From: an uncultured Oscillospiraceae bacterium
Lineage (GTDB): Bacteria > Bacillota > Clostridia > Oscillospirales > Oscillospiraceae
NCBI GenBank assembly: GCA_944385475.1
Contig: CALWXJ010000002.1
Span: 1 to 33,112, forward strand
DNA: 33,112 nt
Direction of reading: 5' to 3'
Shown: positions 24,502 through 33,112 of the stretch, one piece after another
How positions within the stretch are numbered: position 1 is the first letter of the stretch
How the letters are laid out: each line of letters starts with the position of its first letter
Program-made: the position numbers and the translations under genes
The notes under the pieces: model-generated
What the model saw: only the letters and a program-made list of their open reading frames with translations
What the model was told of the DNA's origin: nothing
Databases searched by the model: none

Positions 24502-24702
24502 ATGATATCTGCCGCTTTGCTGCTGTTCGCCAATACACTGCTGTTTGCCCTGCGCCTGTCCGGCGGGTCGTTTCCCCGTCCTCTCAGCGCCTCGGAAGAG
24601 CGGCAGTGGCTCCAGCGCCATGCCCAGGGGGACCCGGAGGCCCGGAACGTGCTCATCGAACACAATCTGCGTCTGGTGGCCCACATTGTTAAAAAGGACT
24701 GA
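24502..24702 (+). CDS. sigK: Sporulation sigma factor SigK, 5' part (split gene)
   Basis: SigK directs late mother-cell gene expression during sporulation. This part encodes a hydrophobic N-terminal pro-sequence-like segment (about residues 1-22), then FPRPLSASEE and the region 2.1-2.2 motif ARNVLIEHNLRLVAHIVKK, the most conserved stretch of SigK. After codon 65 the gene leaves the family sequence and stops at once (Asp, TGA at 24700-24702), where the skin-like element begins. GGGAGGG lies about 7 nt ahead of the ATG. The rest of the gene is at 29710-30162. Alone it is inactive; it needs excision of the element. The hydrophobic leader suggests SpoIVFB-type processing, as in Bacillus. Confidence 0.93.
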   Translation: MISAALLLFANTLLFALRLSGGSFPRPLSASEERQWLQRHAQGDPEARNVLIEHNLRLVAHIVKKD

Positions 24703-26320
24703 AGCGGAAGGAAGCGGTCTCCCGGTCAAAAACGGCCGCCCAGAGGCCGCCGAATTTTAAGGAGATATCCAAGTGCAGTATTTTTTTCGTGCTCTCTTTT
24801 TTGACCACCACATGGTCCAAAACCGTGGTCACCAAAGCGGCGTTTACACCATTTTGAAAGGAGAGCTCCGCCCTCAAAGCCTCTTTGATACGGTCCATCT
24901 GCTCCTGAGAAAGCCGGTCTTTTTCCTCCTCCGCCTGCAAGGCCTCCAGCTGCCGCTGCCGCTGGTGGATCTGCCGGTTGAACCCGTCGTTACGGGCTTT
25001 GAACTCCGCTGTGGAGAGCGCTCCTTCCATACTCATCTCCAGCAGGCGGTCCTTTTTGGATTCCAGGGCCGTCACTTCCTCTTCCAGCCGGCGGGTCTCC
25101 CGCTGCCGGCGTTGTTGCCCCGGGGCGCGCAGGATCACCTTCATCACCGTCTCTATGATCCGCTCTTGATCCGGGGCCAGGCGGCGAAAGACCTCCGCCA
25201 GGACACAATTCAGTTCTTCTGTCCGGACCTGGGGTGCCAGGCAGCCTGCCCTGCCCCGGTTTCGGTACACCCGGCACTGCCAGACCTCCCTCTCCCCTCC
25301 GGCGTTTTTCTGCACCTGCCGGTGAAAACTGGTGCCATGCTCCTGGCAGAGGATCTTTCCGCTGTAGGGGTAGCGGTTGTGGAACTGGGCGGCACGTTGA
25401 TGGCTCCGCATCTGGGCGCTGCGCAATTTATACAGGGCGTTGGCCCGGTCCCAAAGCTCCGCTGATACGATAGCCGGAACAGACGGGTCGGGGTACATCA
25501 CCCACTCGCTCTCATCCAAAGCCACCTTCCGCTTGCTGCGATAGTCCAGCGTCTTGCTCTTATTCCCGCAATACCATCCCTTGTACTTGGGGTTTTCCAG
25601 AATATGACGGATGGTCAATACGTTGAAGGGATTGCCCTCCCGGCTGGTGATCCCCTCTTCGTACAGCGTTTTGGAAATGCGGCGGATCCCCATCTCCTCG
25701 TTGGCATAGAGGTGGAAGATCCGCCGGACCACCTGGGCCTCCTGTTCGTTGATGGTGAGAACGCAGTCTTTTTTATCGTACCCCCACAGCTTGTCATTGC
25801 CCAGCACGTGCCCGTTTTTGATGGCCTGGCGGAAGCCGAACTTCAGCCGCTGTGAGAGCTTGCGCACCTCATCCTGGGCCACCCCTGCCATGACCACCAG
25901 GCGGAATTCGCTGTCACTGTCCAGCGTATTGATGTTGTCGCTTTGAAACAGCACCCCGACATCGTGCTCCAGCAGTTCCTGGGTGTAGCGGATGCTGTCC
26001 AGGGTGGAGCGGGAAAACCGGGAGATCTCCTTGGTGATGATAAAGTCAAAGCACCCAGCCCTGGCGTCTTCGATCATCCGGAGGAAGCTGTCCCGTTTCC
26101 GGGTGCTCGTCCCGCTGATCCCCTCATCGATGTATCCCGGGACATAGGTCCAATTCTCCTTGGACGCAATGAGCTCTGTATAATACTGCACCTGGTTTTC
26201 CAGGCTGTTGCGCTGCTCATCCTTGTCCGTGGAAACTCTGGCGTAAAAGGTCACCCGCAGGGGAAGATCAAAAACACTCTTTCCCTGCCCCAGCTCACGG
26301 CGTACCTGAAGAATATCCAT
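24689..26320 (-). CDS. spoIVCA: Large serine recombinase of the skin element (SpoIVCA type)
   Basis: This enzyme is predicted to excise the element from sigK. The 543-residue protein has the resolvase catalytic domain (about 22-165) with nucleophile S30 in YARVSTDKDEQ and the active-site arginines in SRFSR (101, 104), the recombinase domain (about 180-300), a zinc ribbon with C325-x-x-H328 ... C349 ... C360, and a coiled-coil/C-terminal part (about 405-485) used by large serine recombinases for synapsis control. AAGGAG precedes the ATG. Its last codon and stop (TTT TAA) lie in the left attachment core. After excision the same frame would read TTT TGA, so the protein is unchanged. The gene overlaps the 62-residue gene upstream by 26 nt. 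Confidence 0.95.
   Translation of the reverse strand: MDILQVRRELGQGKSVFDLPLRVTFYARVSTDKDEQRNSLENQVQYYTELIASKENWTYVPGYIDEGISGTSTRKRDSFLRMIEDARAGCFDFIITKEISRFSRSTLDSIRYTQELLEHDVGVLFQSDNINTLDSDSEFRLVVMAGVAQDEVRKLSQRLKFGFRQAIKNGHVLGNDKLWGYDKKDCVLTINEQEAQVVRRIFHLYANEEMGIRRISKTLYEEGITSREGNPFNVLTIRHILENPKYKGWYCGNKSKTLDYRSKRKVALDESEWVMYPDPSVPAIVSAELWDRANALYKLRSAQMRSHQRAAQFHNRYPYSGKILCQEHGTSFHRQVQKNAGGEREVWQCRVYRNRGRAGCLAPQVRTEELNCVLAEVFRRLAPDQERIIETVMKVILRAPGQQRRQRETRRLEEEVTALESKKDRLLEMSMEGALSTAEFKARNDGFNRQIHQRQRQLEALQAEEEKDRLSQEQMDRIKEALRAELSFQNGVNAALVTTVLDHVVVKKESTKKILHLDISLKFGGLWAAVFDRETASFRFSPF
24691..24695 (+). repeat. Left attachment core (AAAAA) in sigK
   Basis: Core shared with 29710-29714. 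Left context is GTT|AAAAA|GG; the codon phase is AAA AA|G (Lys64, Lys65). Confidence 0.8.
24702..24713. repeat. Right arm of the predicted attP inverted repeat
   Basis: AAGCGGAAGGAA is the complement, at 10 of 12 positions, of TTCCTTTTGCTT at 29689-29700. In the circle the two arms are 20 nt apart and symmetrical about the first two A's of the core. Confidence 0.65.
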
Positions 26321-26483
26321 CCATCTGCTCCTTTGCTGCCGCAGAAGGCGAAAAGAACGCCGGGATCTCCTTCATGGCCCGTACCAGATCCACACCGCCG
26401 TCATATGCGGCCTTAGAGAGCAGGCCCAGGGCGTGGAGCCGCCCCAGCAAAACGCAGAGTATCTCCTTTTGCGCCTCATCCAT
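26295..26483 (-). CDS. 62-residue protein, candidate recombination directionality factor
   Basis: The product (MDEAQKEILCVLLGRLHALG...) is not firmly recognised. The stretch LLGRLHALGLLSKAAYDGGVDLV has the helix-turn-helix-like look of short SHOCT-type segments, and the tail is Ser/Ala/Gly-rich. Its stop codon lies 26 nt inside the recombinase gene, so the two are co-transcribed and probably coupled. It stands behind the sigma-E-type promoter at 26503-26531. A small protein made together with a serine recombinase at the time of excision is a reasonable directionality-factor candidate (inference only). GGTGATGG ahead of the ATG is a modest ribosome binding site. Confidence 0.72.
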   Translation of the reverse strand: MDEAQKEILCVLLGRLHALGLLSKAAYDGGVDLVRAMKEIPAFFSPSAAAKEQMDGYSSGTP

Positions 26484-26502
26484 TTTCCATCACCTCATTG
26501 GA

Positions 26503-26531
26503 TGGGTATGAAGGACCCTCCGCAAAAATGC
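26503..26531 (-). promoter_or_regulatory. Sigma-E-type promoter of the 62-residue gene and recombinase
   Basis: On the minus strand GCATTTT (26531-26525), 14 nt, CATACCCA (26510-26503), against the known sigma-E consensus KMATATT, 13-15 nt, CATACAHT: 6/7 and 6/8 matches with ideal spacing. The expected start, near 26497, is just ahead of the 62-residue gene. This fits mother-cell expression of skin recombinases known in Bacillus. Confidence 0.65.
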
Positions 26532-26571
26532 CCCTGGGTCCGCCCTCCTCCCCCCTGCAAAGGCACCCAGG
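26524..26571 (-). terminator. Terminator-like hairpin after the Crp/Fnr gene
   Basis: CCTGGGT (26571-26565) pairs with ACCCAGG (26539-26533); after a short GGCA gap comes T5. It would insulate the recombinase unit from the regulator gene; the T-run is shared with the -35 of the sigma-E-type promoter. Confidence 0.55.
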
Positions 26572-26574
26572 ATC

Positions 26575-27240
26575 TTAAAGCGGCTCGTTTAGCAGGCAAA
26601 AGTGACTCTTGTCCACCTTTAGCAAACCCTCTTTTTGCATTTTGCTCAACTCATTGGACAGCGCGCTGCGCTCCACATGGAGATAGTCCGCCAACTGCTG
26701 GCGGTTAAAGGGGATGGTGAAGCTGCGGCTGCCGCTGCGGACCGCCTGATAGGAAAGGTAGGACAAAAGCCGGCCCCGAATGGTTTTGGAGGAGGTGTGG
26801 AAGATCTTTCGGGACAGGTGCAGGTTTTTTTCGGCAGAGAGAAACAGCAGGTTCCCAATGAGTTTATTGTGGTAATCACAGGCGCGACAGCACACATTCA
26901 AAATCCGGCTCACGTCCATAAACAGCACCTGGGCGGGTTCTGCCGCCACCACGTTCACCATCAGCGGCTCTCCGGGAAGACATGCGTATGTCTCCGCGAA
27001 GATCTGGCCGGGGCCCACACTGTCCAGGACCGTGGTATTGCCCCACAGATCGTCACTTTCAATCAAAACACTGCCGGAGAGCACCATTCCCAGGGAGGAT
27101 ACCACCTCTCCCACGCCATAGATGGTTTCCCTGCGTTCAAATTTGCGCCGCACTGCCCCCAGGCAGGCCAGCATCGCCTCCACCTCCTCCCCAGTGGTGC
27201 CCCGAAACAACGCCGTTTTGGAAAGCAATGTAAATTCCAT
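26575..27240 (-). CDS. Crp/Fnr-family regulator (HcpR-like by position)
   Basis: The 221-residue protein has an N-terminal cyclic-nucleotide-binding-type beta-barrel (about 10-120), a dimerisation helix, and a C-terminal winged helix (about 174-207, [20 protein letters not shown]) typical of Crp/Fnr. It stands divergent to hcp. Clostridial HcpR regulators activate hcp in response to nitrosative stress, and a palindrome fitting class II activation lies between the genes, so an HcpR-like role is likely. Two adjacent Cys plus a third (NVCCRAC, 116-121) could be involved in sensing, but the classic Fnr N-terminal Cys cluster is absent. AAAGGAG precedes the ATG. Confidence 0.85.
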
Positions 27241-27254
27241 AACATGCTCCTTTT

Positions 27255-27293
27255 GTTGTTAAAACAACATATTAGTTGTTTTAAATCTATTAT
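27255..27293 (+). promoter_or_regulatory. Candidate Crp/Fnr operator and hcp promoter
   Basis: The inverted repeat GTTGTT-AA-AACAAC (27255-27268) is followed by a -10 TATTAT (27288-27293) without a recognisable -35. With a start near 27300, the repeat centre lies at about -40, the class II activator position. The repeat also overlaps the leader of the divergent regulator gene, so it could mediate autoregulation. A half-similar GTTGTTTTAAAT follows at 27275. Confidence 0.62.
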
Positions 27294-27375
27294 AGTAGCT
27301 CCAGAAAGTCAAGGGCGCCCTCTGTTTTTTCAAAAGCGCCGGAGGACGAATGCATCCCATAGGAGGAAGAAAACC

Positions 27376-29016
27376 ATGGAACAAAAAATGTTTTGCTATC
27401 AATGCCAGGAGGCCGCCGGCTGCAGCGGCTGCACTATGGCGGGTGTATGTGGAAAAAAGCCGGACGTGGCGGCCATGTAGGATCTGCTGGTCTATGTGAC
27501 CCGGGGCCTGTCCGCTGTGACCACTGCCCTGCGGGCCCAGGGGGAGACGGTGGCAGCAGAGGTGAATCACCTCATCACCTTAAATCTCTTTACCACCATT
27601 ACCAACGCCAATTTTGACAAAGAGGCTATTTTGCAGCGGATCCGGGATACACTGCAGGCAAAAGAAGCCCTGCTGCCTCAGGTGCGGGAGCCGGAAATCC
27701 TGCCCCCCGCCGCCCTGTGGGACGGCGCAGGCGACTGGGACGCCAAAGCCGCCCAGGTGGGCGTGCTGTCCACCAAGGATGAGGATATCCGCTCTTTGCG
27801 GGAGCTGATCACCTATGGACTCAAGGGCCTGTCAGCTTATTCCAAGCACGCCAACGCCCTGCTTCAGGAGGACGGCGAGGTGGACGCATTTTTGCAGCGG
27901 GCGCTGGCCGCCACCCTGGACGATGCCCTCACTGTGGAGGATCTGGTGGCCCTGGCCCTGGAGACGGGAAAATACGGTGTTCAGGGCATGGCACTGCTGG
28001 ACAGGGCCAATACTGCCTCCTATGGGAACCCGGAGATCACCCGGGTGAACATCGGCGTGGGCAAGAACCCCGGCATCCTGGTCTCCGGCCACGACCTGCG
28101 GGACCTGGAGATGCTGCTGGAGCAGACCCAGGGCACCGGTGTGGATGTGTATACCCACTGTGAGATGCTGCCTGCCCACTACTATCCCGCGTTTAAAAAA
28201 TATCCCAACTTCGTGGGCAATTATGGCAACGCCTGGTGGAAACAGGGAGAGGAATTCGCCTCCTTCCGGGGTCCCATCCTCATGACCACCAACTGCATTG
28301 TTCCCCCCAGGGACAGTTACAAAGACCGTCTCTATACCACCGGGGCGGCAGGCTACCCCGGCTGTCGGCACATCCCCGGGGAGATTGGCCAGGAGAAGGA
28401 CTTCTCCCAGCTGATCGCCCACGCAAAACAGTGCCAGCCCCCTCTGGAGATCGAGCAGGGGGAGATTGTGGGCGGGTTTGCCCACGCCCAGCTGCTGGCC
28501 CTGTCGGATAAGATCGTGGAGGCGGTAAAAAGCGGCGCCATCAAAAAATTCGTGGTGATGGCAGGATGTGACGGCCGCGCCAAAAGCCGGAACTACTATA
28601 CGGACTTTGCCAAGGCCCTGCCCCAAGACGCTGTGATCCTCACCGCAGGCTGCGCCAAGTATAAGTACAACAAGCTGAACCTGGGAGAGATCGGCGGCAT
28701 TCCCCGGGTGCTGGATGCCGGGCAGTGCAACGACTCCTACTCCCTGGCGGTCATCGCTCTGAAACTCAAGGAGGTCTTCGGCCTCGATGATCTCAACGAT
28801 CTGCCCATTGCCTACAACATCGCCTGGTATGAGCAAAAGGCGGTCATTGTGCTGCTGGCGCTTTTATACCTGGGTGTCAAAAACATTCACCTGGGTCCCA
28901 CCCTTCCCGCTTTCCTCAGCCCCAACGTGGCCAAAGTTCTGGTGGAGAACTTCGGCATTGCAGGGATCAGCAGCGTGGAAGAGGATCTCAAAGTATTTTT
29001 CGGAGAAAGTCTTTAA
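27376..29016 (+). pseudogene. hcp: Hybrid-cluster protein (hydroxylamine reductase), with in-frame TAG at codon 35
   Basis: Hcp reduces hydroxylamine or nitric oxide in anaerobes and protects against nitrosative stress. The frame opens [16 protein letters not shown] with cluster ligands C7, C10, C19 and C25, then meets TAG at 27478-27480 where Hcp proteins have Gln ([12 protein letters not shown]). From there the frame stays open for 511 codons to TAA at 29014-29016 and keeps the hybrid-cluster blocks ([53 protein letters not shown]). A single C-to-T change would explain it. TAG ends other genes here, such as the lipoprotein at 23574-23576, so recoding is unlikely. AGGAGG precedes the ATG. 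Confidence 0.9.
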
Positions 29017-29017
29017 G

Positions 29018-29046
29018 AAAAAAGCGGCAGGCTGCGCCTGCCGCTT
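29018..29046. terminator. Bidirectional terminator between hcp and tspO
   Basis: A 10-bp perfect stem AAGCGGCAGG/CCTGCCGCTT (29022-29046). On the minus strand it ends in T6, good for tspO; on the plus strand GTTTA follows, weaker, for hcp. Confidence 0.85.
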
Positions 29047-29048
29047 GT

Positions 29049-29525
29049 TTATCCGTTGAGATTCCAGACCCCGAAATTGAGATAGGCGGCAAATGTCACC
29101 CACAGAAGATAAGGGATTTGCAGGTAGGCCGCTTTTTGATCCACCTTATAAAACGAAATGATCATGAACAAAATCAGCACCCATAAAACCAGCAGCCAGA
29201 TCAGGGCAAAGCCGTATGCCTGCAGGTTGAAAAAGAAAATGCTCCAGAAGAAGTTTAAGGCCAGCTGAATCAAAAAAAGTGCCAGGCTGCAGGAGCGGAA
29301 GCGGGATGGCGCCGCCAAATAAATCCGGGCTGCCCCAATGCCCATCAGGGCAAACAGGATGCCCCAGACAATGGGAAATACTATGGGAGGCGGGGAAAAG
29401 GGAGGTTGGATGACCTCCTGGCTATATGTCTTGGCGCCGTCCCGGGTCAGCCAGCCCGACAGGGCGCCCACCGCCTCTGTAAATAGGATCCAGGCGCCGT
29501 ACGTTTTCCATGTGCGCTTGTTCAT
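29049..29525 (-). CDS. tspO: TspO/MBR-family tryptophan-rich membrane protein
   Basis: TspO proteins bind tetrapyrroles and are linked to oxidative-stress responses and porphyrin control. The 158-residue product has five hydrophobic segments, is rich in Trp and Pro, and shows the PPFSPPPIVFPIVWGILFAL pattern (about 41-60) and the C-terminal YLNFGVWNLNG, both characteristic. Its ribosome binding site is weak (GGGTGATG). As cargo of the sigK element with the Crp/Fnr-hcp pair it adds to a redox/nitrosative-stress theme (inference). No promoter was clearly seen in the 169 nt upstream. Confidence 0.92.
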   Translation of the reverse strand: MNKRTWKTYGAWILFTEAVGALSGWLTRDGAKTYSQEVIQPPFSPPPIVFPIVWGILFALMGIGAARIYLAAPSRFRSCSLALFLIQLALNFFWSIFFFNLQAYGFALIWLLVLWVLILFMIISFYKVDQKAAYLQIPYLLWVTFAAYLNFGVWNLNG

Positions 29526-29656
29526 TTATCATCACCCAGCAGTAGCTTATGCCAAGCGCCCCGGAATATACATGATCGCTTCAGCAAAGAAATCTGCCTT
29601 ATGCCGGCGCCTTGCGCATGGCCTCTTCCAAGATGCTGTTTTATGACAATTTGGCA

Positions 29657-29702
29657 GCAGGCTTGTCCGGCAGCTTGGAAAGCCTGCGTTCCTTTTGCTT
29701 TT
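29657..29702 (+). terminator. Terminator-like hairpin at the right end of the element
   Basis: GCAGGCTT (29657-29664) pairs with AAGCCTGC (29680-29687) and is followed by a T-rich tract (GTTCCTTTTGCTTTT). It may insulate the second part of sigK from read-through; the T-rich part doubles as the left attP arm. Confidence 0.45.
29689..29700. repeat. Left arm of the predicted attP inverted repeat
   Basis: TTCCTTTTGCTT; partner at 24702-24713 (10/12 complementary). In the excised circle the 20 nt between the arms hold the AAAAA core, with the symmetry axis between its first two A's; an inner G.CCTT pair is also symmetrical. Confidence 0.65.
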
Positions 29703-29709
29703 GGCCTTC

Positions 29710-29714
29710 AAAAA
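29710..29714 (+). repeat. Right attachment core (AAAAA) in sigK
   Basis: Core shared with 24691-24695; right context is TTC|AAAAA|ATAT, in the codon phase needed to continue SigK. Confidence 0.8.
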
Positions 29715-30162
29715 ATATTACACCCAAACCGGTGATCAGGAGGATCTGGTCTCTATCGGCACCATTGGGCTGATCAAGGCCATCTCCACCTTTGATCCCT
29801 CCAAGGGGGCACGTCTGGCCACTTACGCCGCCCGCTGCATTGAAAATGAGATCCTGATGTATTTTCGCAGCCAGAAAAAACTTCAAGGAGAAGTCTCTCT
29901 TTCTGATACCATCGAATCCGATCGGGAGGGGGACGCCTTGCAGCTTATGGATGTCATCGGGGTGGAGGACACCATGTTGGATGATCTCCACGACCGGGAC
30001 AACGCATCCCGGCTGCGGCAGTTGGTGGATCAGTGCCTTTCCGACCGGGAGGCAAGGATCGTGCGGCTGCGCTATGGCCTGGGCGGCACCGTTCCCCTGA
30101 CGCAGCGGGAGATCGCCACCTCCTTTGGGATCTCCCGCTCCTATGTATCGCGCCGCCACTAA
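29710..30162 (+). CDS. sigK: Sporulation sigma factor SigK, 3' part (split, C-terminus truncated)
   Basis: From Lys-Lys-Tyr-Tyr the frame encodes SigK regions 2.3-4: DLVSIGTIGLIKAISTFDPSKG and LATYAARCIENEILMYFRS (regions 2.3-2.4, -10 recognition), a region 3 linker, and region 4 with LTQREIATSFGISRSYVSR. It has no start codon of its own; any upstream in-frame start lies in the element. The protein then ends Arg-His-TAA, where SigK normally continues with IEKRAL and some 15-30 more residues. The break is in the -35 recognition helix, so even the rejoined protein (about 213 residues) may be impaired. The foreign island begins at this point. Confidence 0.9.
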   Translation, partial: KKYYTQTGDQEDLVSIGTIGLIKAISTFDPSKGARLATYAARCIENEILMYFRSQKKLQGEVSLSDTIESDREGDALQLMDVIGVEDTMLDDLHDRDNASRLRQLVDQCLSDREARIVRLRYGLGGTVPLTQREIATSFGISRSYVSRRH

Positions 30163-30169
30163 TGTAAAC

Positions 30170-30211
30170 GATGCCCGGAAAGCCTTGAAAATACAGGCTT
30201 GTCCGGGCATC
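30170..30211. terminator. Long hairpin after sigK and the protease operon
   Basis: GATGCCCGGAAAGCCT (30170-30185) pairs with AGGCTTGTCCGGGCATC (30195-30211), one bulge, 9-nt loop. No strong T-run on either strand (GTTTACA on the minus). It probably ends the convergent Fic-protease-membrane-protein transcript. It shares CAGGCTTGTCCGG and GGAAAGCCT with the hairpin at 29657-29687. Confidence 0.55.
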
Positions 30212-30279
30212 AGTCATGTTAGGGTAGCGCCGCCGTTATTGCAAGCGGTAGAAAAATTAGGACAATAAGCGGCCATTCA

Positions 30280-30756
30280 TCATTTATTAGCGTTTTCAGC
30301 CGGATTTTCCATGACAGCTCTTTTCTCTTTGCGCATGGTCAACCATGCATTAATTCCCATTTTGGTTATTGTAACAAGAACTATAGCAATGACAGGGGAA
30401 AGAAAGGCTGCGGATGCGCCCAACACAGGAGACAACGCAACCGAAATTGCGCCTACAATATATGTTTGAACAACGCTTTTCTCTTGGAGGATAGCTATAC
30501 GGTCATCTCTGTATTTCTCATTCCCAGAAAGGAAGGCTTCAAGTTCATTTAAAACCTTTTCAAAGAATACGGAATGCCCTTTTTCGGTCCCGAACGGAAC
30601 GGTGGTTGACATGGACGCAGACAACCAGGCTTTAGCAGTTTCCTCATAACTTCCATTCTCGTTATATAGTTTATTAATCATGTTCCTTTGATAAGGCTGT
30701 AAAGCATCAATCCACGAATCGGGATCAACTGCAAACAATTCATCAATTCGTTCCAT
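30280..30756 (-). CDS. Unrecognised two-helix membrane protein paired with a protease
   Basis: The 158-residue protein is not recognised. The first 90 residues look soluble and helical, with an aromatic/acidic stretch (about 14-45) and the segment TTVPFGTEKG. Two hydrophobic segments follow (about 97-113 and 116-137), separated by a short Ser/Ala turn, then a basic patch (RKEKR) and a polar tail. Its ATG overlaps the protease stop codon (TAATG), so the two proteins are coupled and probably act together. A membrane effector or anchor controlled by the protease is a reasonable guess. Base composition is lower in GC than the surrounding chromosome. Confidence 0.8.
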   Translation of the reverse strand: MERIDELFAVDPDSWIDALQPYQRNMINKLYNENGSYEETAKAWLSASMSTTVPFGTEKGHSVFFEKVLNELEAFLSGNEKYRDDRIAILQEKSVVQTYIVGAISVALSPVLGASAAFLSPVIAIVLVTITKMGINAWLTMRKEKRAVMENPAENANK

Positions 30757-31409
30757 TATGTCATCTCCTTAATGTATTCTGCAGAAATTGCGTGTGTTGT
30801 CTGATGTAAAGTTTGAGGATCAATTCCACCAATGCTAATACCTCCATTTGTATTAGGTGCATACGAACCTATTACCATTCCAACTATCTCGTTGGTTTGA
30901 GAATTAATAATTGGTCCACCTGATTGGCCAGGACGAGTTTGAATATTTAATATTATATTCTTCAATTTGATTCCTGCGGATTCAATCAAAATCTTTGCAC
31001 CAATGTGGGTATTCTGCTGTGTCAGCACCATGCGGCCATGGTTGCTATGCGGATAACCAAAAACAACTACTTCGCTTCCGACCTGAATGTTATCGGTAGA
31101 TGAGAGAGACATGGTCGACTGAATAGTCATTTCGGTTTTTATTAAGCACACATCGCAAATCGGGTTTATTTCTGCAATTACTGCGGACATATACTGCACT
31201 TGTTTTCGTGAGGTGTCTTGGTAATCTTGCATGCTGGACATTCCGTTGAAAATTATCACTAAACCATTATCGTTGTGATTCACAACATGCGCAGCTGTGG
31301 CAAAAAAACCAGGTTTGTTGATGGCAAAAGCAGTTCCTAAAAGAGTGAGACCAGTTGGAGTAATACGGCCTACAGAAAAAATTCCTCTACAAATATCCGT
31401 GAAAATCAT
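30756..31409 (-). CDS. Trypsin-like serine protease, cytoplasmic, 217 residues
   Basis: This is a chymotrypsin-fold protease with an apparently complete triad: H41 (FFATAAHV), D86 (ICDVCLIK) and S163 (TRPGQSGGPI). The barrel core alone fills the protein; there is no signal peptide, PDZ domain or transmembrane segment, so it is not HtrA. Cytoplasmic trypsin-like proteases without export signals are frequent in prokaryotic conflict systems (established for trypsin-associated systems; application here is inference). A strong AAAGGAG precedes the ATG, 20 nt after the Fic gene; the stop overlaps the next ATG. It is the middle gene of a three-gene operon. Confidence 0.88.
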   Translation of the reverse strand: MIFTDICRGIFSVGRITPTGLTLLGTAFAINKPGFFATAAHVVNHNDNGLVIIFNGMSSMQDYQDTSRKQVQYMSAVIAEINPICDVCLIKTEMTIQSTMSLSSTDNIQVGSEVVVFGYPHSNHGRMVLTQQNTHIGAKILIESAGIKLKNIILNIQTRPGQSGGPIINSQTNEIVGMVIGSYAPNTNGGISIGGIDPQTLHQTTHAISAEYIKEMT

Positions 31410-31429
31410 ACAATGTCTCCTTTCTTCGA

Positions 31430-32443
31430 TTAGCTAAATGTGTATTGGGTTGCATATCTGTTCTTTAATTGATATGCCCAATGTCCACTTTCTCGATATT
31501 TAACAAGTTTCCCCGAGGAGGCAAATCCAGCCAAAATGCGATTTGCCGTGGCAGCTGATACTCCACATAACGCCCGCACATCTGCATTCATGATAAACTC
31601 ATGCGTTTCCAAAAACTTTTCAATCTGCTTCCAGCGCATCGTTGCCTTATCCATCGGCCCATCGCTCATTTCATCACTCGTATTGATTGCATCAATGAGC
31701 GATGCCTTGATGGTTGAGAGCATGAACTCGATAAACGCTGTGGACTCTCCGGCATCGTTAGACGCATTGATTGCTGCATAGTATTCCGGTTGACGGGCGT
31801 GGATCATGGACTCTACCGGCAACCAAGCAAAGGTCGGGTTCCATTTGGAGAGCAGCAACGTATGCCATAGGCGACCAATACGACCATTGCCGTCAGCAAA
31901 GGGATGGATCAGCTCCAGCTCGTAGTGAAACACGCAGCTGCGGATCAGCATGTGTATGTCGCTGTTCTTCACCCAGTCCAACAGTTCCATCACCAAATCC
32001 GGTACATATTGCGGAAGTGTTCCAAAGTGTAGGACATGCCCCTCCTGATTGACAACGCCGACTGGACGGGAACGGAACATACCAGATTCCTCAACCAAGC
32101 CTTGCGTCATAATGCCATGGGCCATCAGCAGATCGTCCACAGCGTAAGGATCAAGCTCATCCATCCGCTCATAGATCTCATAGGCATTCTTGACCTCCGC
32201 AATATCCTTCGGCGGAGCCAGCACCTGCTTGCCGTTCAGAACTGCGGTAACCTGTTCCAGACTCAGGGTGTTCTGTTCAATAGCCAGAGAGCCGTGGATC
32301 GTCCGGATACGGTTTGTCCGCCGCAAGGTTGGGTTTGCAGACAGCTGATTGGTGGAAGTCAACTTGCCCACCAGTTCGGCGATTTCCGCCACCTCATGGA
32401 TCATCGTATTTGTAATTTCAAAAGGAGGTTTCTTGTTCCTCAT
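31430..32443 (-). CDS. Fic-domain protein with C-terminal winged helix
   Basis: Fic enzymes transfer AMP (or other nucleotide groups) to target proteins. The 337-residue protein has the full active-site motif HPFADGNGRIGR (180-191), with H180 catalytic and D184 for Mg. An N-terminal S52-L-A-I-E56-Q segment resembles the class II inhibitory (S/T)xxxE(G/N) helix, here with Gln in the last place, so self-inhibition is expected. The C-terminal 70 residues form a winged-helix-like domain (NADVRALCGVSAATANRILAG), suggesting autoregulation. It is the first gene of the operon with the protease and membrane protein; AGGTG-type ribosome binding site. Confidence 0.92.
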   Translation of the reverse strand: MRNKKPPFEITNTMIHEVAEIAELVGKLTSTNQLSANPTLRRTNRIRTIHGSLAIEQNTLSLEQVTAVLNGKQVLAPPKDIAEVKNAYEIYERMDELDPYAVDDLLMAHGIMTQGLVEESGMFRSRPVGVVNQEGHVLHFGTLPQYVPDLVMELLDWVKNSDIHMLIRSCVFHYELELIHPFADGNGRIGRLWHTLLLSKWNPTFAWLPVESMIHARQPEYYAAINASNDAGESTAFIEFMLSTIKASLIDAINTSDEMSDGPMDKATMRWKQIEKFLETHEFIMNADVRALCGVSAATANRILAGFASSGKLVKYRESGHWAYQLKNRYATQYTFS

Positions 32444-32477
32444 AGAAGCACCTCATGTGAAAGATTCGTTCGACAGT

Positions 32478-32506
32478 ATTATACCACACATCACTCGTTT
32501 CATCAA
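32478..32506 (-). promoter_or_regulatory. Promoter of the Fic-protease-membrane protein operon
   Basis: On the minus strand TTGATG (32506-32501), 17 nt, TATAAT (32483-32478) with a TGG extended element. The leader is about 30 nt. Confidence 0.82.
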
Positions 32507-32534
32507 TCATTTTTGGCGACATGATTGAGTGATG
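32489..32534. repeat. Interrupted inverted repeat over the Fic promoter
   Basis: CATCACTC (32489-32496) and CAATCAT (32504-32510) are both complementary to ATGATTGAGTGATG (32521-32534). The left arm covers the spacer and -35, a good place for a repressor, possibly the Fic winged helix itself (inference). Confidence 0.5.
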
Positions 32535-32558
32535 GAGTGTATTGCTTTTATAAAATAG

Positions 32559-32584
32559 GGCCCGGAGAGGGAACTCTCCGGGCC
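32559..32584. terminator. Strong hairpin upstream of the Fic promoter
   Basis: An 11-bp perfect stem GGCCCGGAGAG/CTCTCCGGGCC with a 4-nt loop. GTTTCAATTT follows on the plus strand and CTATTTTAT on the minus, so it may terminate weakly in both directions. Confidence 0.55.
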
Positions 32585-32813
32585 GTTTCAATTTAGATTG
32601 TTATTATTCAATTCGAACCCATACATGAATTTCTCAAACTGATTTCGAGTGCCATGGAGTGAAATTCCCTTAAAAGTCGCTAAGAGACTTTAGGCTCCCT
32701 CCAAAACACAAACCACTCGCACTCCACGCCAAATGCAATCGCAAACGGTAGTGTAGAAAAAGCGTAGAAACGCCCTCTACCCTGCACAAAAGGATACCCC
32801 AAAAATGCAGTAA
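32585..32813. other. Non-coding stretch at the right side of the island
   Basis: No convincing reading frame or RNA gene. A small hairpin TAAAAGTC/GACTTTA lies near 32670-32692, and short repeats of GTAGAAA occur near 32750-32770. Together with 32444-32584 this makes a 370-nt gap holding only the Fic promoter region and the hairpin. It may contain the right boundary of the island. Confidence 0.4.
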
Positions 32814-33112
32814 AATCAAGGGTTAGCGGCAGAAAAGAGAAAACTGACCCACACGATTTCGAAGCGCATCCGAGACCAGTTGATCCGACTCTATGAGCAG
32901 GGATTCCGCCAGTTCTGGGTGGGCGGCGCCTTGGGCGTGGACATGTGGGCCGGCGAAATTCTGCTCCGCCTCAAAGAACAGCCAAAATATAGTGAGATGC
33001 AACTGATGATCGCACTCCCCTTTGAAGGACATGATAGGAACTGGGAGGAGCGCAGCCGCAAACGCATGGCTTTTCTCATACAGCACAGTTCGGAAACGGT
33101 GAGCACAGGTCA
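32814..33112 (+). pseudogene. DUF1273/SLOG-family protein fragment lacking its N-terminus, continuing past the window
   Basis: The frame is open from 32814 to the edge and matches the DUF1273 (YpsA-like, SLOG/Rossmann) pattern: LIRLYEQGFRQFWVGGALGV, DMWAGEILL, LMIALPFEGHD. These proteins normally begin with a short strand followed by TGHRP and some 20-30 further residues before this point. Here that part is missing, a stop lies at 32811-32813, and no ATG or ribosome binding site is seen before the conserved core. The 5' end was probably removed when the neighbouring island inserted. The 3' end is outside the window. Confidence 0.75.

What the first reader, a model, noticed from the sequence alone, without database searches (positions are those of the whole stretch)
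24502..30162. sigK is split by a miniature 5-kb skin element
The two halves of a SigK gene are seen at 24502-24696 and 29710-30162. They share an AAAAA core in the correct codon phase, and joining them restores an uninterrupted SigK frame. The insert encodes a large serine recombinase at its left edge, as SpoIVCA does in Bacillus. Known skin elements (B. subtilis, C. difficile) are phage-like and larger; this one is 5,019 bp with no phage genes.
Basis: partly seen in the sequence, partly recalled or inferred. Interest (0 to 1): 0.88.

Follow-up and report, generated by a model that had tools for sequence, protein, structure and literature searches.

The report
Sporulation gene sigK split twice
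In this gut bacterium the master gene for late spore formation is cut by a small, probably excisable DNA element and again, near its end, by a second one; relatives carry up to three such cuts in the same gene, so making a spore would need several precise DNA deletions in the mother cell.

Summary
In detail: sigK is cut at codon 65 by a 5,019-bp element with core AAAAA at both ends, and joining the flanks restores the frame. Of 13 genomes with that boundary, 12 keep the missing tail exon elsewhere; the window's own does not show it. In 74 of 80 loci with a relative of the window's recombinase, sigK is cut at the same codon, in both orientations. Of these 80 loci, 17 are cut again at a site B and 10 at site C, two of them at both. 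Four exons of Anaeromassilibacillus sp. An200 join to an open 240-aa SigK. In 77 of 77 loci a small ORF stands before the recombinase, like the B. subtilis factor Skr, usually behind a sigma-E-like box. Best reading: a non-phage skin-type element, one of two in this sigK, each removed by its own recombinase. Excision was not observed. Skin elements are known; no paper listed reports a sigK cut more than once.

The parts
24502..24695 (+). sigK exon 1 (codons 1-65), with hydrophobic pro-sequence-like N terminus
   Evidence: NF004471 SigK 66.5 bits; join
24691..24695 (+). site A left core AAAAA (attL-A); recombinase arm GGACTGAAGCGGAAGG to its right
   Evidence: inverted arms in most of 15 loci
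24689..26320 (-). large serine recombinase (site-A family), 543 aa; stop codon formed over the sigK junction
   Evidence: Pfam Resolvase/Recombinase/Zn_ribbon; 56-77% relatives in 80 loci
26295..26483 (-). 62-aa companion ORF overlapping the recombinase start; candidate recombination directionality factor (Skr-like by position and size)
   Evidence: 77 of 77 loci carry one; Skr architecture in PMC6957869 (passages)
26503..26531 (-). sigma-E-like promoter: GCATTTT (26525-26531), 14 bp, CATACCCA (26503-26510)
   Evidence: CATA at about this place in 74 of 77 loci, shuffle mean 5.0; consensus recalled
26575..27240 (-). Crp/Fnr-like regulator (cargo)
   Evidence: cNMP_binding + HTH_Crp_2
27376..29016 (+). 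hcp (prismane, hydroxylamine reductase) cargo, broken by an in-frame TAG at codon 35 (27478-27480)
29049..29525 (-). TspO/MBR cargo gene
   Evidence: PF03073
29710..29714 (+). site A right core AAAAA (attR-A)
29710..30153 (+). sigK exon 2 (codons 65 to about 211); codon 113 (site B) is uninterrupted here
   Evidence: NF004471 186.2 bits, profile 69-215 of 235
30142..30170 (+). site C left boundary (attL-C) TATGTATCGCGCCGCCACTAATGTAAACG
   Evidence: pattern match with 0 mismatches; like boundaries after the same codon in 11 further loci
30154..33112 (.). left end of second (site C) element: unknown 158-aa protein, trypsin-like peptidase, Fic protein, all on the minus strand; runs off the contig end
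   Evidence: Fic 82% identical 1.35 kb past site C in Flavonifractor sp. An100 (L170)

Best explanation
The window's sigK is a composite gene interrupted by two independent elements. Element A (24,691-29,714) is a compact, non-phage skin-type element. Its operon (62-aa companion plus large serine recombinase) follows a sigma-E-like promoter, so I infer that it is made in the mother cell; there the companion acts as directionality factor and lets the recombinase recombine attL-A with attR-A, dropping a 5-kb circle and joining exon 1 to exon 2. Element C, of which only the left end is in the window, must be removed by its own recombinase to add the last exon (C-terminal end of region 4.2). Only then is full SigK made; the spore chromosome keeps both elements. 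Shown: junctions, frames, att arms, the conserved companion and promoter-like box, purifying selection in relatives, intact tail exons in relatives. Inferred: mother-cell timing, companion function, excision, presence of the tail in this organism.
For: Joined flanks give an open SigK frame; in 74 of 80 loci the recombinase abuts sigK codon 65; in 15 of 15 loci with both flanks the joined frame has no stop before site C. Arms at both ends are inverted repeats (CCTTYYGCTT / AAGCRRAAGG and variants) in most of these 15 (read by eye). Companion in 77 of 77, CATA box in 74 of 77. Site C boundary in the window and 11 further loci; tail exon found in 12 of 13 genomes with it. An200: four exons give a 240-aa SigK; An82: three exons on one contig give 231 aa, 283.8 and 279 bits on NF004471 (cut-off 252) and better there than on SigE models. 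dN/dS of sigK codons 66-112 is 0-0.15 in the 15 of 30 pairs where it could be computed, 10 of which are pairs of multiply cut loci. Own genome has SigE and SigG, each above one of two NCBIfam cut-offs.
Against: The window's own tail exon was not found in G000, so completeness of its sigK is not shown; the genome is 86% complete. No reads, no excised junction seen. The companion profile was built from 50 of the 77 sequences, and the 77 are related (75 distinct proteins). The sigma-E consensus is recalled; only 43 of 77 have [CT]ATTTT at the -35 place, and the score against the full consensus rose only from 9.8 (shuffled) to 10.9 in 50 regions. The window's hcp is broken. The host's ability to make spores is unknown; the dpaA search was uninformative (rang in 14 of 14 controls). 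Two loci carry the recombinase without sigK beside it (L114, L168).
Confidence: 0.8

Rival explanations
1. sigK is a dead gene in this lineage: two mobile elements landed in it after sporulation was lost, and nothing is excised.
For: Tail exon not found in G000; small MAG; hcp broken; 13 of 36 same-genus genomes gave no clear sigK (read).
Against: The window's two exons have no frameshift or stop and join in phase; sigK codons 66-112 evolve at dN/dS 0-0.15 in 15 pairs of relatives and recombinases at 0.03-0.19 in 30 (several dS values exceed 1.5); tails stay open in 12 of 13 genomes; SigE and SigG are present in G000. The dN/dS was not obtained for the window's own sigK.
Confidence: 0.13
2. 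The elements are ordinary integrative elements that use sigK only as a landing site; excision is stray or stress-driven, not part of sporulation.
For: Site-specific insertion, both orientations (9 changes on the recombinase tree), varied cargo; L114 and L168 show the recombinase beside what looks like a joined attP instead of sigK.
Against: CATA box at a near-constant place before the companion in 74 of 77 loci; sigK kept under selection; Skr and CD1234 are mother-cell-controlled in known skins (PMC6957869 and PMC5025042, passages). Excision outside sporulation is not excluded.
Confidence: 0.15
3. Assembly chimera in the MAG.
For: Contig of a 63-contig MAG that ends 3 kb past site C.
Against: The same genes at the same codon in Oscillibacter sp. 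PC13 (72-74% nucleotide identity in two blocks), the site-A junction in 74 of 80 loci, a like site-C boundary in 11 further loci.
Confidence: 0.02

Closest known systems
skin element of Bacillus subtilis (sigK; recombinase SpoIVCA, factor Skr)
   Same: Interrupts sigK; large serine recombinase; a 64-aa directionality factor encoded just before and overlapping the recombinase, its expression under mother-cell sigma-E (PMC6957869, passages).
   Different: 48 kb prophage-like (PMC13141910, passage) against 5 kb without phage genes; different codon (the B. subtilis core AATGA, recalled, matches site B here, not A); one interruption, not two or three.
skin(Cd) of Clostridioides difficile (CD1231 recombinase, CD1234 factor)
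   Same: Large serine recombinase, separate factor, site inside sigK, recombinase beside the 3' part as in orientation II here (PMC5025042, passages).
   Different: 19 genes; site and orientation differ from B. subtilis; from construct sizes quoted in the passages (about 265 bp of 3' sequence) its site fits none of A, B, C (rough inference).
gin element in gerE of Bacillus cereus ATCC10987
   Same: Non-phage gene-intervening element excised in sporulation by a serine recombinase plus an additional factor (PMC5595907, abstract and Discussion).
   Different: Different gene, three recombinases; single interruption.
Oscillibacter sp. PC13 site-A element (L115)
   Same: Same recombinase family, Crp, Hcp, TspO, orientation I, 5.09 kb.
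   Different: Hcp is one open 548-aa frame; the sigK tail is present, so no site C.

Membership tests
skin-type sigK-intervening element | Splits sigK so that removal restores one frame | tested here: met
   15 of 15 loci with both flanks. In the window only up to site C.
skin-type sigK-intervening element | Own site-specific recombinase at the edge | tested here: met
skin-type sigK-intervening element | Short shared core with inverted arms | tested here: met
   (arms read by eye)
skin-type sigK-intervening element | Directionality factor (Skr, CD1234) | tested here: inconclusive
   Companion in 77 of 77 loci; function and homology to Skr not tested
skin-type sigK-intervening element | Mother-cell (sigma-E) expression | tested here: inconclusive
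   CATA box 74 of 77, -35-like letters 43 of 77; consensus recalled, no expression data
skin-type sigK-intervening element | Excision during sporulation | not testable with these tools
   No reads
skin-type sigK-intervening element | Prophage-like gene content (classical skin only; not required since gin) | tested here: not met
   Of the window element's five proteins only the recombinase matches a PHROG; 58 of 64 larger cargo ORFs of 15 relatives: among the first 25 of 47 PHROGs shown, integrases, a transposase, ABC transporters, a kinase and unnamed families, no named structural one; best listed phage record 39% identity
SpoIVCA lineage of recombinases | Closest sequence kin is SpoIVCA | not tested
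   No SpoIVCA sequence was fetched

The most novel reading that the evidence does not exclude
In Oscillospirales sigK has become a multi-exon gene at the DNA level: three fixed sites (A codon 65, B codon 113, C codon 212) are occupied one, two or three at a time by unrelated elements, each with its own recombinase, so that SigK is made only after all have been excised in the mother cell: an AND lock on late sporulation built repeatedly by stacking elements. The site-A family is a host-resident, non-phage class with a built-in Skr-like factor and switching orientation.
Probability: 0.6. Interest if true: 0.88.

Novelty: new variant of a known kind. Interest (0 to 1): 0.8.

Why it matters
Why spore formers keep skin elements in sigK is an open question; the C. 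difficile work (PMC5025042, abstract and passages) ties excision to control of SigK. A gene cut by two or three unrelated elements, kept under selection and recurring in a family of gut bacteria, offers natural replicates: species with zero, one, two or three locks. It may also explain why SigK looks missing or truncated in some gut genomes, and it gives a large matched set of serine recombinases, att sites and candidate directionality factors.

Tried and rejected
Phage origin: a pattern scan of viral contigs gave 3 relatives of the recombinase; the best listed phage and plasmid records have 39% and 37% identity, none of 385 and 317 matching records reaches 60%; rejected for site A. A second intact sigK in G000: not found. 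The window's tail exon: looked for by two sigK-tail patterns, one peptide and one attR pattern; not found. dpaA as a sign of sporulation: the family search rang in 14 of 14 control genomes, so not used. Pfam on 11 companion proteins at E up to 1 gave nothing usable. Short ORFs before the recombinases of sites B and C were looked for in two loci each: one stands close before each site-C recombinase, none with a ribosome site close before either site-B one; not pursued. A first join of An200 and An82 exons was off by a base or two and was redone. Literature: (listings, titles and abstract starts) showed no paper on a sigK with more than one interruption; subscription journals are mostly not held.
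Full report
What is in the window. The window is a whole contig (33,112 bases) of a 1.73-Mb genome assembly in 63 contigs, 86% complete. sigK begins at 24502. After codon 65 the frame leaves SigK at core AAAAA (24691-24695); SigK resumes at a second AAAAA (29710-29714). The cores are 5,019 bp apart and the joined flanks read HIVKKYY in an open frame of 213 residues. Between them lie a large serine recombinase next to the 5' exon and on the opposite strand, a 62-aa ORF overlapping its start, a Crp-like regulator, hcp with an in-frame TAG at codon 35, and tspO. Of the five element proteins only the recombinase matches a PHROG. Codon numbers follow the intact SigK of G030.

SigK does not end where an intact SigK ends. 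It reads ...SYVSRRH* and matches the SigK profile only to position 215 of 235. Eight intact same-genus genes go on past ...SYVSR, seven with IEKRALEKL and one with LESKALAKL. A search for TA.TGTAA[AG]C after this sigK codon gave the window and 11 further loci (12 alignment rows, one place twice). Five of the 11 (L126, L129, L146, G033, G036) stay close to the window over about 100 bases, others diverge sooner, and L154 looks like the other orientation. In two same-genus genomes with this break (G033, G036) the lost tail lies elsewhere, directly behind a serine recombinase, next to an inverted copy of the arm (ATCGTTTACAATA). This is a second insertion site, called C here. GC is 0.57 in element A, 0.58 in exon 2 and 0.46 from site C to the contig end. 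The Fic gene 1.28 kb past it has an 82% relative 1.35 kb past site C in Flavonifractor sp. An100.

The site-A family. A scan of one genome per species (84,980) with four recombinases kept the best 80 of 146 loci; record titles name Oscillospiraceae, Oscillibacter, Flavonifractor and neighbours, or only Clostridia or uncultured bacterium. In 74 of 80 a sigK exon abuts the recombinase's 3' end at codon 65: 32 with the recombinase beside exon 1 (as here), 42 beside the 3' exon. Of the six exceptions, two end at the contig end (L128, L150), one is a short contig (L173), one has sigK 4.6 kb away (L130), and two (L114, L168) have what looks by eye like both element arms joined, an attP. Where both flanks were held (15 loci) the joined frame has no stop before site C: 13 have none, and in L103 and L146 I take the one stop to be the later one near codon 212. 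Eleven show KKYY over the junction, L146 shows NKYY, the junction of L109 was not in the printed stretch, and in L129 and L161 my automatic join added a few codons. Element lengths are 3.06-11.25 kb. Orientation changes 9 times on a quick recombinase tree against 23 in shuffles; starred branches force at least 4. Arms on both sides are inverted repeats, so a change at the centre could flip orientation; this last point is inference.

The same genus. Among 36 same-genus genomes, judged by where the matches break: 12 have sigK contiguous across sites A and B, and 8 of these were read to full length (the other four tails were not printed); 3 are cut at A (G019, G021, G032), 7 at B (G003, G016, G019, G022, G024, G026, G029), 2 at C (G033, G036); 13 gave no clear sigK, two of them contig-end pieces. 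G019 is cut at A and B.

More than one cut. In the 80 loci 17 show A plus B (the exon ends in CIEN or CVEN followed by A or T, mostly attL GAAAATG|CTATCCT or CTACCCT; L121 and L125 have another arm). Ten show A plus C; L151 and L165 have all three. These are lower bounds, since many contigs end early. L103 ends near site C with a different arm and is not counted. The 3' exon beyond site B was found in 12 of 18 genomes searched (in the other six only SigE-like matches), with TAGC[AG]AATGA at its start printed for seven. The tail exon beyond site C was found in 12 of 13 genomes with that boundary; the one without is the window's own (L137 and L165 by a match with 3 mismatches, then read). A recombinase directly before the tail was checked in G033, G036 and An82. 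In Flavonifractor sp. An82 three exons lie on one contig, with about 17 kb (A) and 103 kb (C) between them. In Anaeromassilibacillus sp. An200 four exons of 197, 137 and 304 bases plus tail join to an open 240-residue SigK; the tail lies on another contig. None of the three lengths is a multiple of three, so the phases must match. The An200 and An82 joins score 283.8 and 279 bits on NF004471 (cut-off 252), an intact relative 287; none of the three reaches the TIGR02846 cut-off of 298.65, and SigE of G000 also passes NF004471 (255.6), so the assignment rests on the better SigK than SigE score. In a family sample of 200 genomes the site-A recombinase was found in 28 (E up to 1e-140; the weakest may not be sigK-specific), the C boundary pattern in 16 (one mismatch allowed), the B pattern in 14.

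How it probably works. The 62-aa ORF has a relative before the recombinase in 77 of 77 loci with a held recombinase start (74 named, the window, G021 and G032; L110 and G032 are the same sequence, and six of the 80 named loci, entered without a recombinase start, were left out). The profile was built from 50 of them. In 72 the ORF overlaps the recombinase start, in 38 by the same length, its stop ending 26 bases in. The B. subtilis skin factor Skr is a 64-aa protein overlapping the start of spoIVCA (PMC6957869, passages); the parallel is of position and size, no sequence comparison was made. Before the ORF, CATA lies 18-38 bases upstream in 74 of 77 (mononucleotide shuffles: mean 5.0, maximum 11), and [CT]ATTTT lies further upstream in 43 of 77; the window has GCATTTT-14-CATACCCA. 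This resembles a sigma-E promoter (consensus recalled). The score against the full consensus rose only from 9.8 in shuffles to 10.9 in 50 regions; the fixed place is the stronger sign, though the sequences are related. I infer mother-cell production of recombinase and factor, excision of A, and a separate excision of C by its own recombinase, in either order.

Is sigK alive? Across 30 chosen pairs dN/dS was 0.03-0.19 for the recombinase and 0.06-0.59 for the companion (29 pairs; one had no synonymous change). For sigK codons 66-112 it was 0-0.15 in the 15 pairs where it could be computed; four gave no valid dS, one of them through a misaligned exon (L133/L176, dN 1.07), and eleven had no sequence, both window pairs among them. 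Ten of the 15 are pairs of loci that are both cut more than once (0-0.15). Five of the dS values exceed 1.5 and are near saturation. G000 has SigE (363 bits, cut-off 339) and SigG (427, cut-off 372), each below the cut-off of a second model; a SigF-like protein is below its cut-offs.

Against. No excision was seen; the window's tail is missing; its hcp is broken; the host's ability to form spores is unknown. L114 and L168 show that the recombinase also occurs away from sigK.

What is known. PMC5025042 (passages): skins of B. subtilis and C. difficile sit at different sites in opposite orientation; CD1231 plus CD1234 excise. PMC5595907 (abstract and Discussion): the non-phage gin element in gerE. 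PMC13141910 (passages): an Alicyclobacillus phage in sigK. PMC12946183 and PMC11536998 (passages) had nothing on this point. Eight searches listed no report of a sigK with several interruptions. I therefore call it a new variant of a known kind.

Noticed in passing
L114 11,600-11,680; L168 2,930-3,000: The recombinase is followed not by sigK but by both element arms joined, as expected of an attP (read by eye); L114 is on a 245-kb contig of Flintibacter muris. Whether sigK is intact there is unknown.
   Followed up: partly
window 27478-27480: Single in-frame TAG in hcp inside element A; the relative in Oscillibacter sp. PC13 is open.
   Followed up: partly
L076 390-725 and 3087-3347 (G003): Two copies of the sigK 5' part about 2.6 kb apart, both ending near site B.
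   Followed up: no
G023:C6:861-1301: A second SigK-like gene (67% identity) besides an intact one in the same genome.
   Followed up: no
L185 5,030-10,740 (G033): Three serine recombinases in a row at the end of the site-C element, reminiscent of girA-C of gin; a short ORF stands close before the edge recombinase, and one also in An82.
   Followed up: partly
G174:C16:68105 and 71308: Two matches to the site-C left boundary, each with one mismatch, 3.2 kb apart in one genome.
   Followed up: no
L156 5,193-8,580: Smallest site-A element of the 15 measured, 3.06 kb: recombinase, companion and one further ORF of at least 70 aa.
   Followed up: partly
L103 12,050-12,081 and L187: sigK broken near site C with a different arm; tail found elsewhere (IEKKALEKL...), perhaps a fourth element type.
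   Followed up: no
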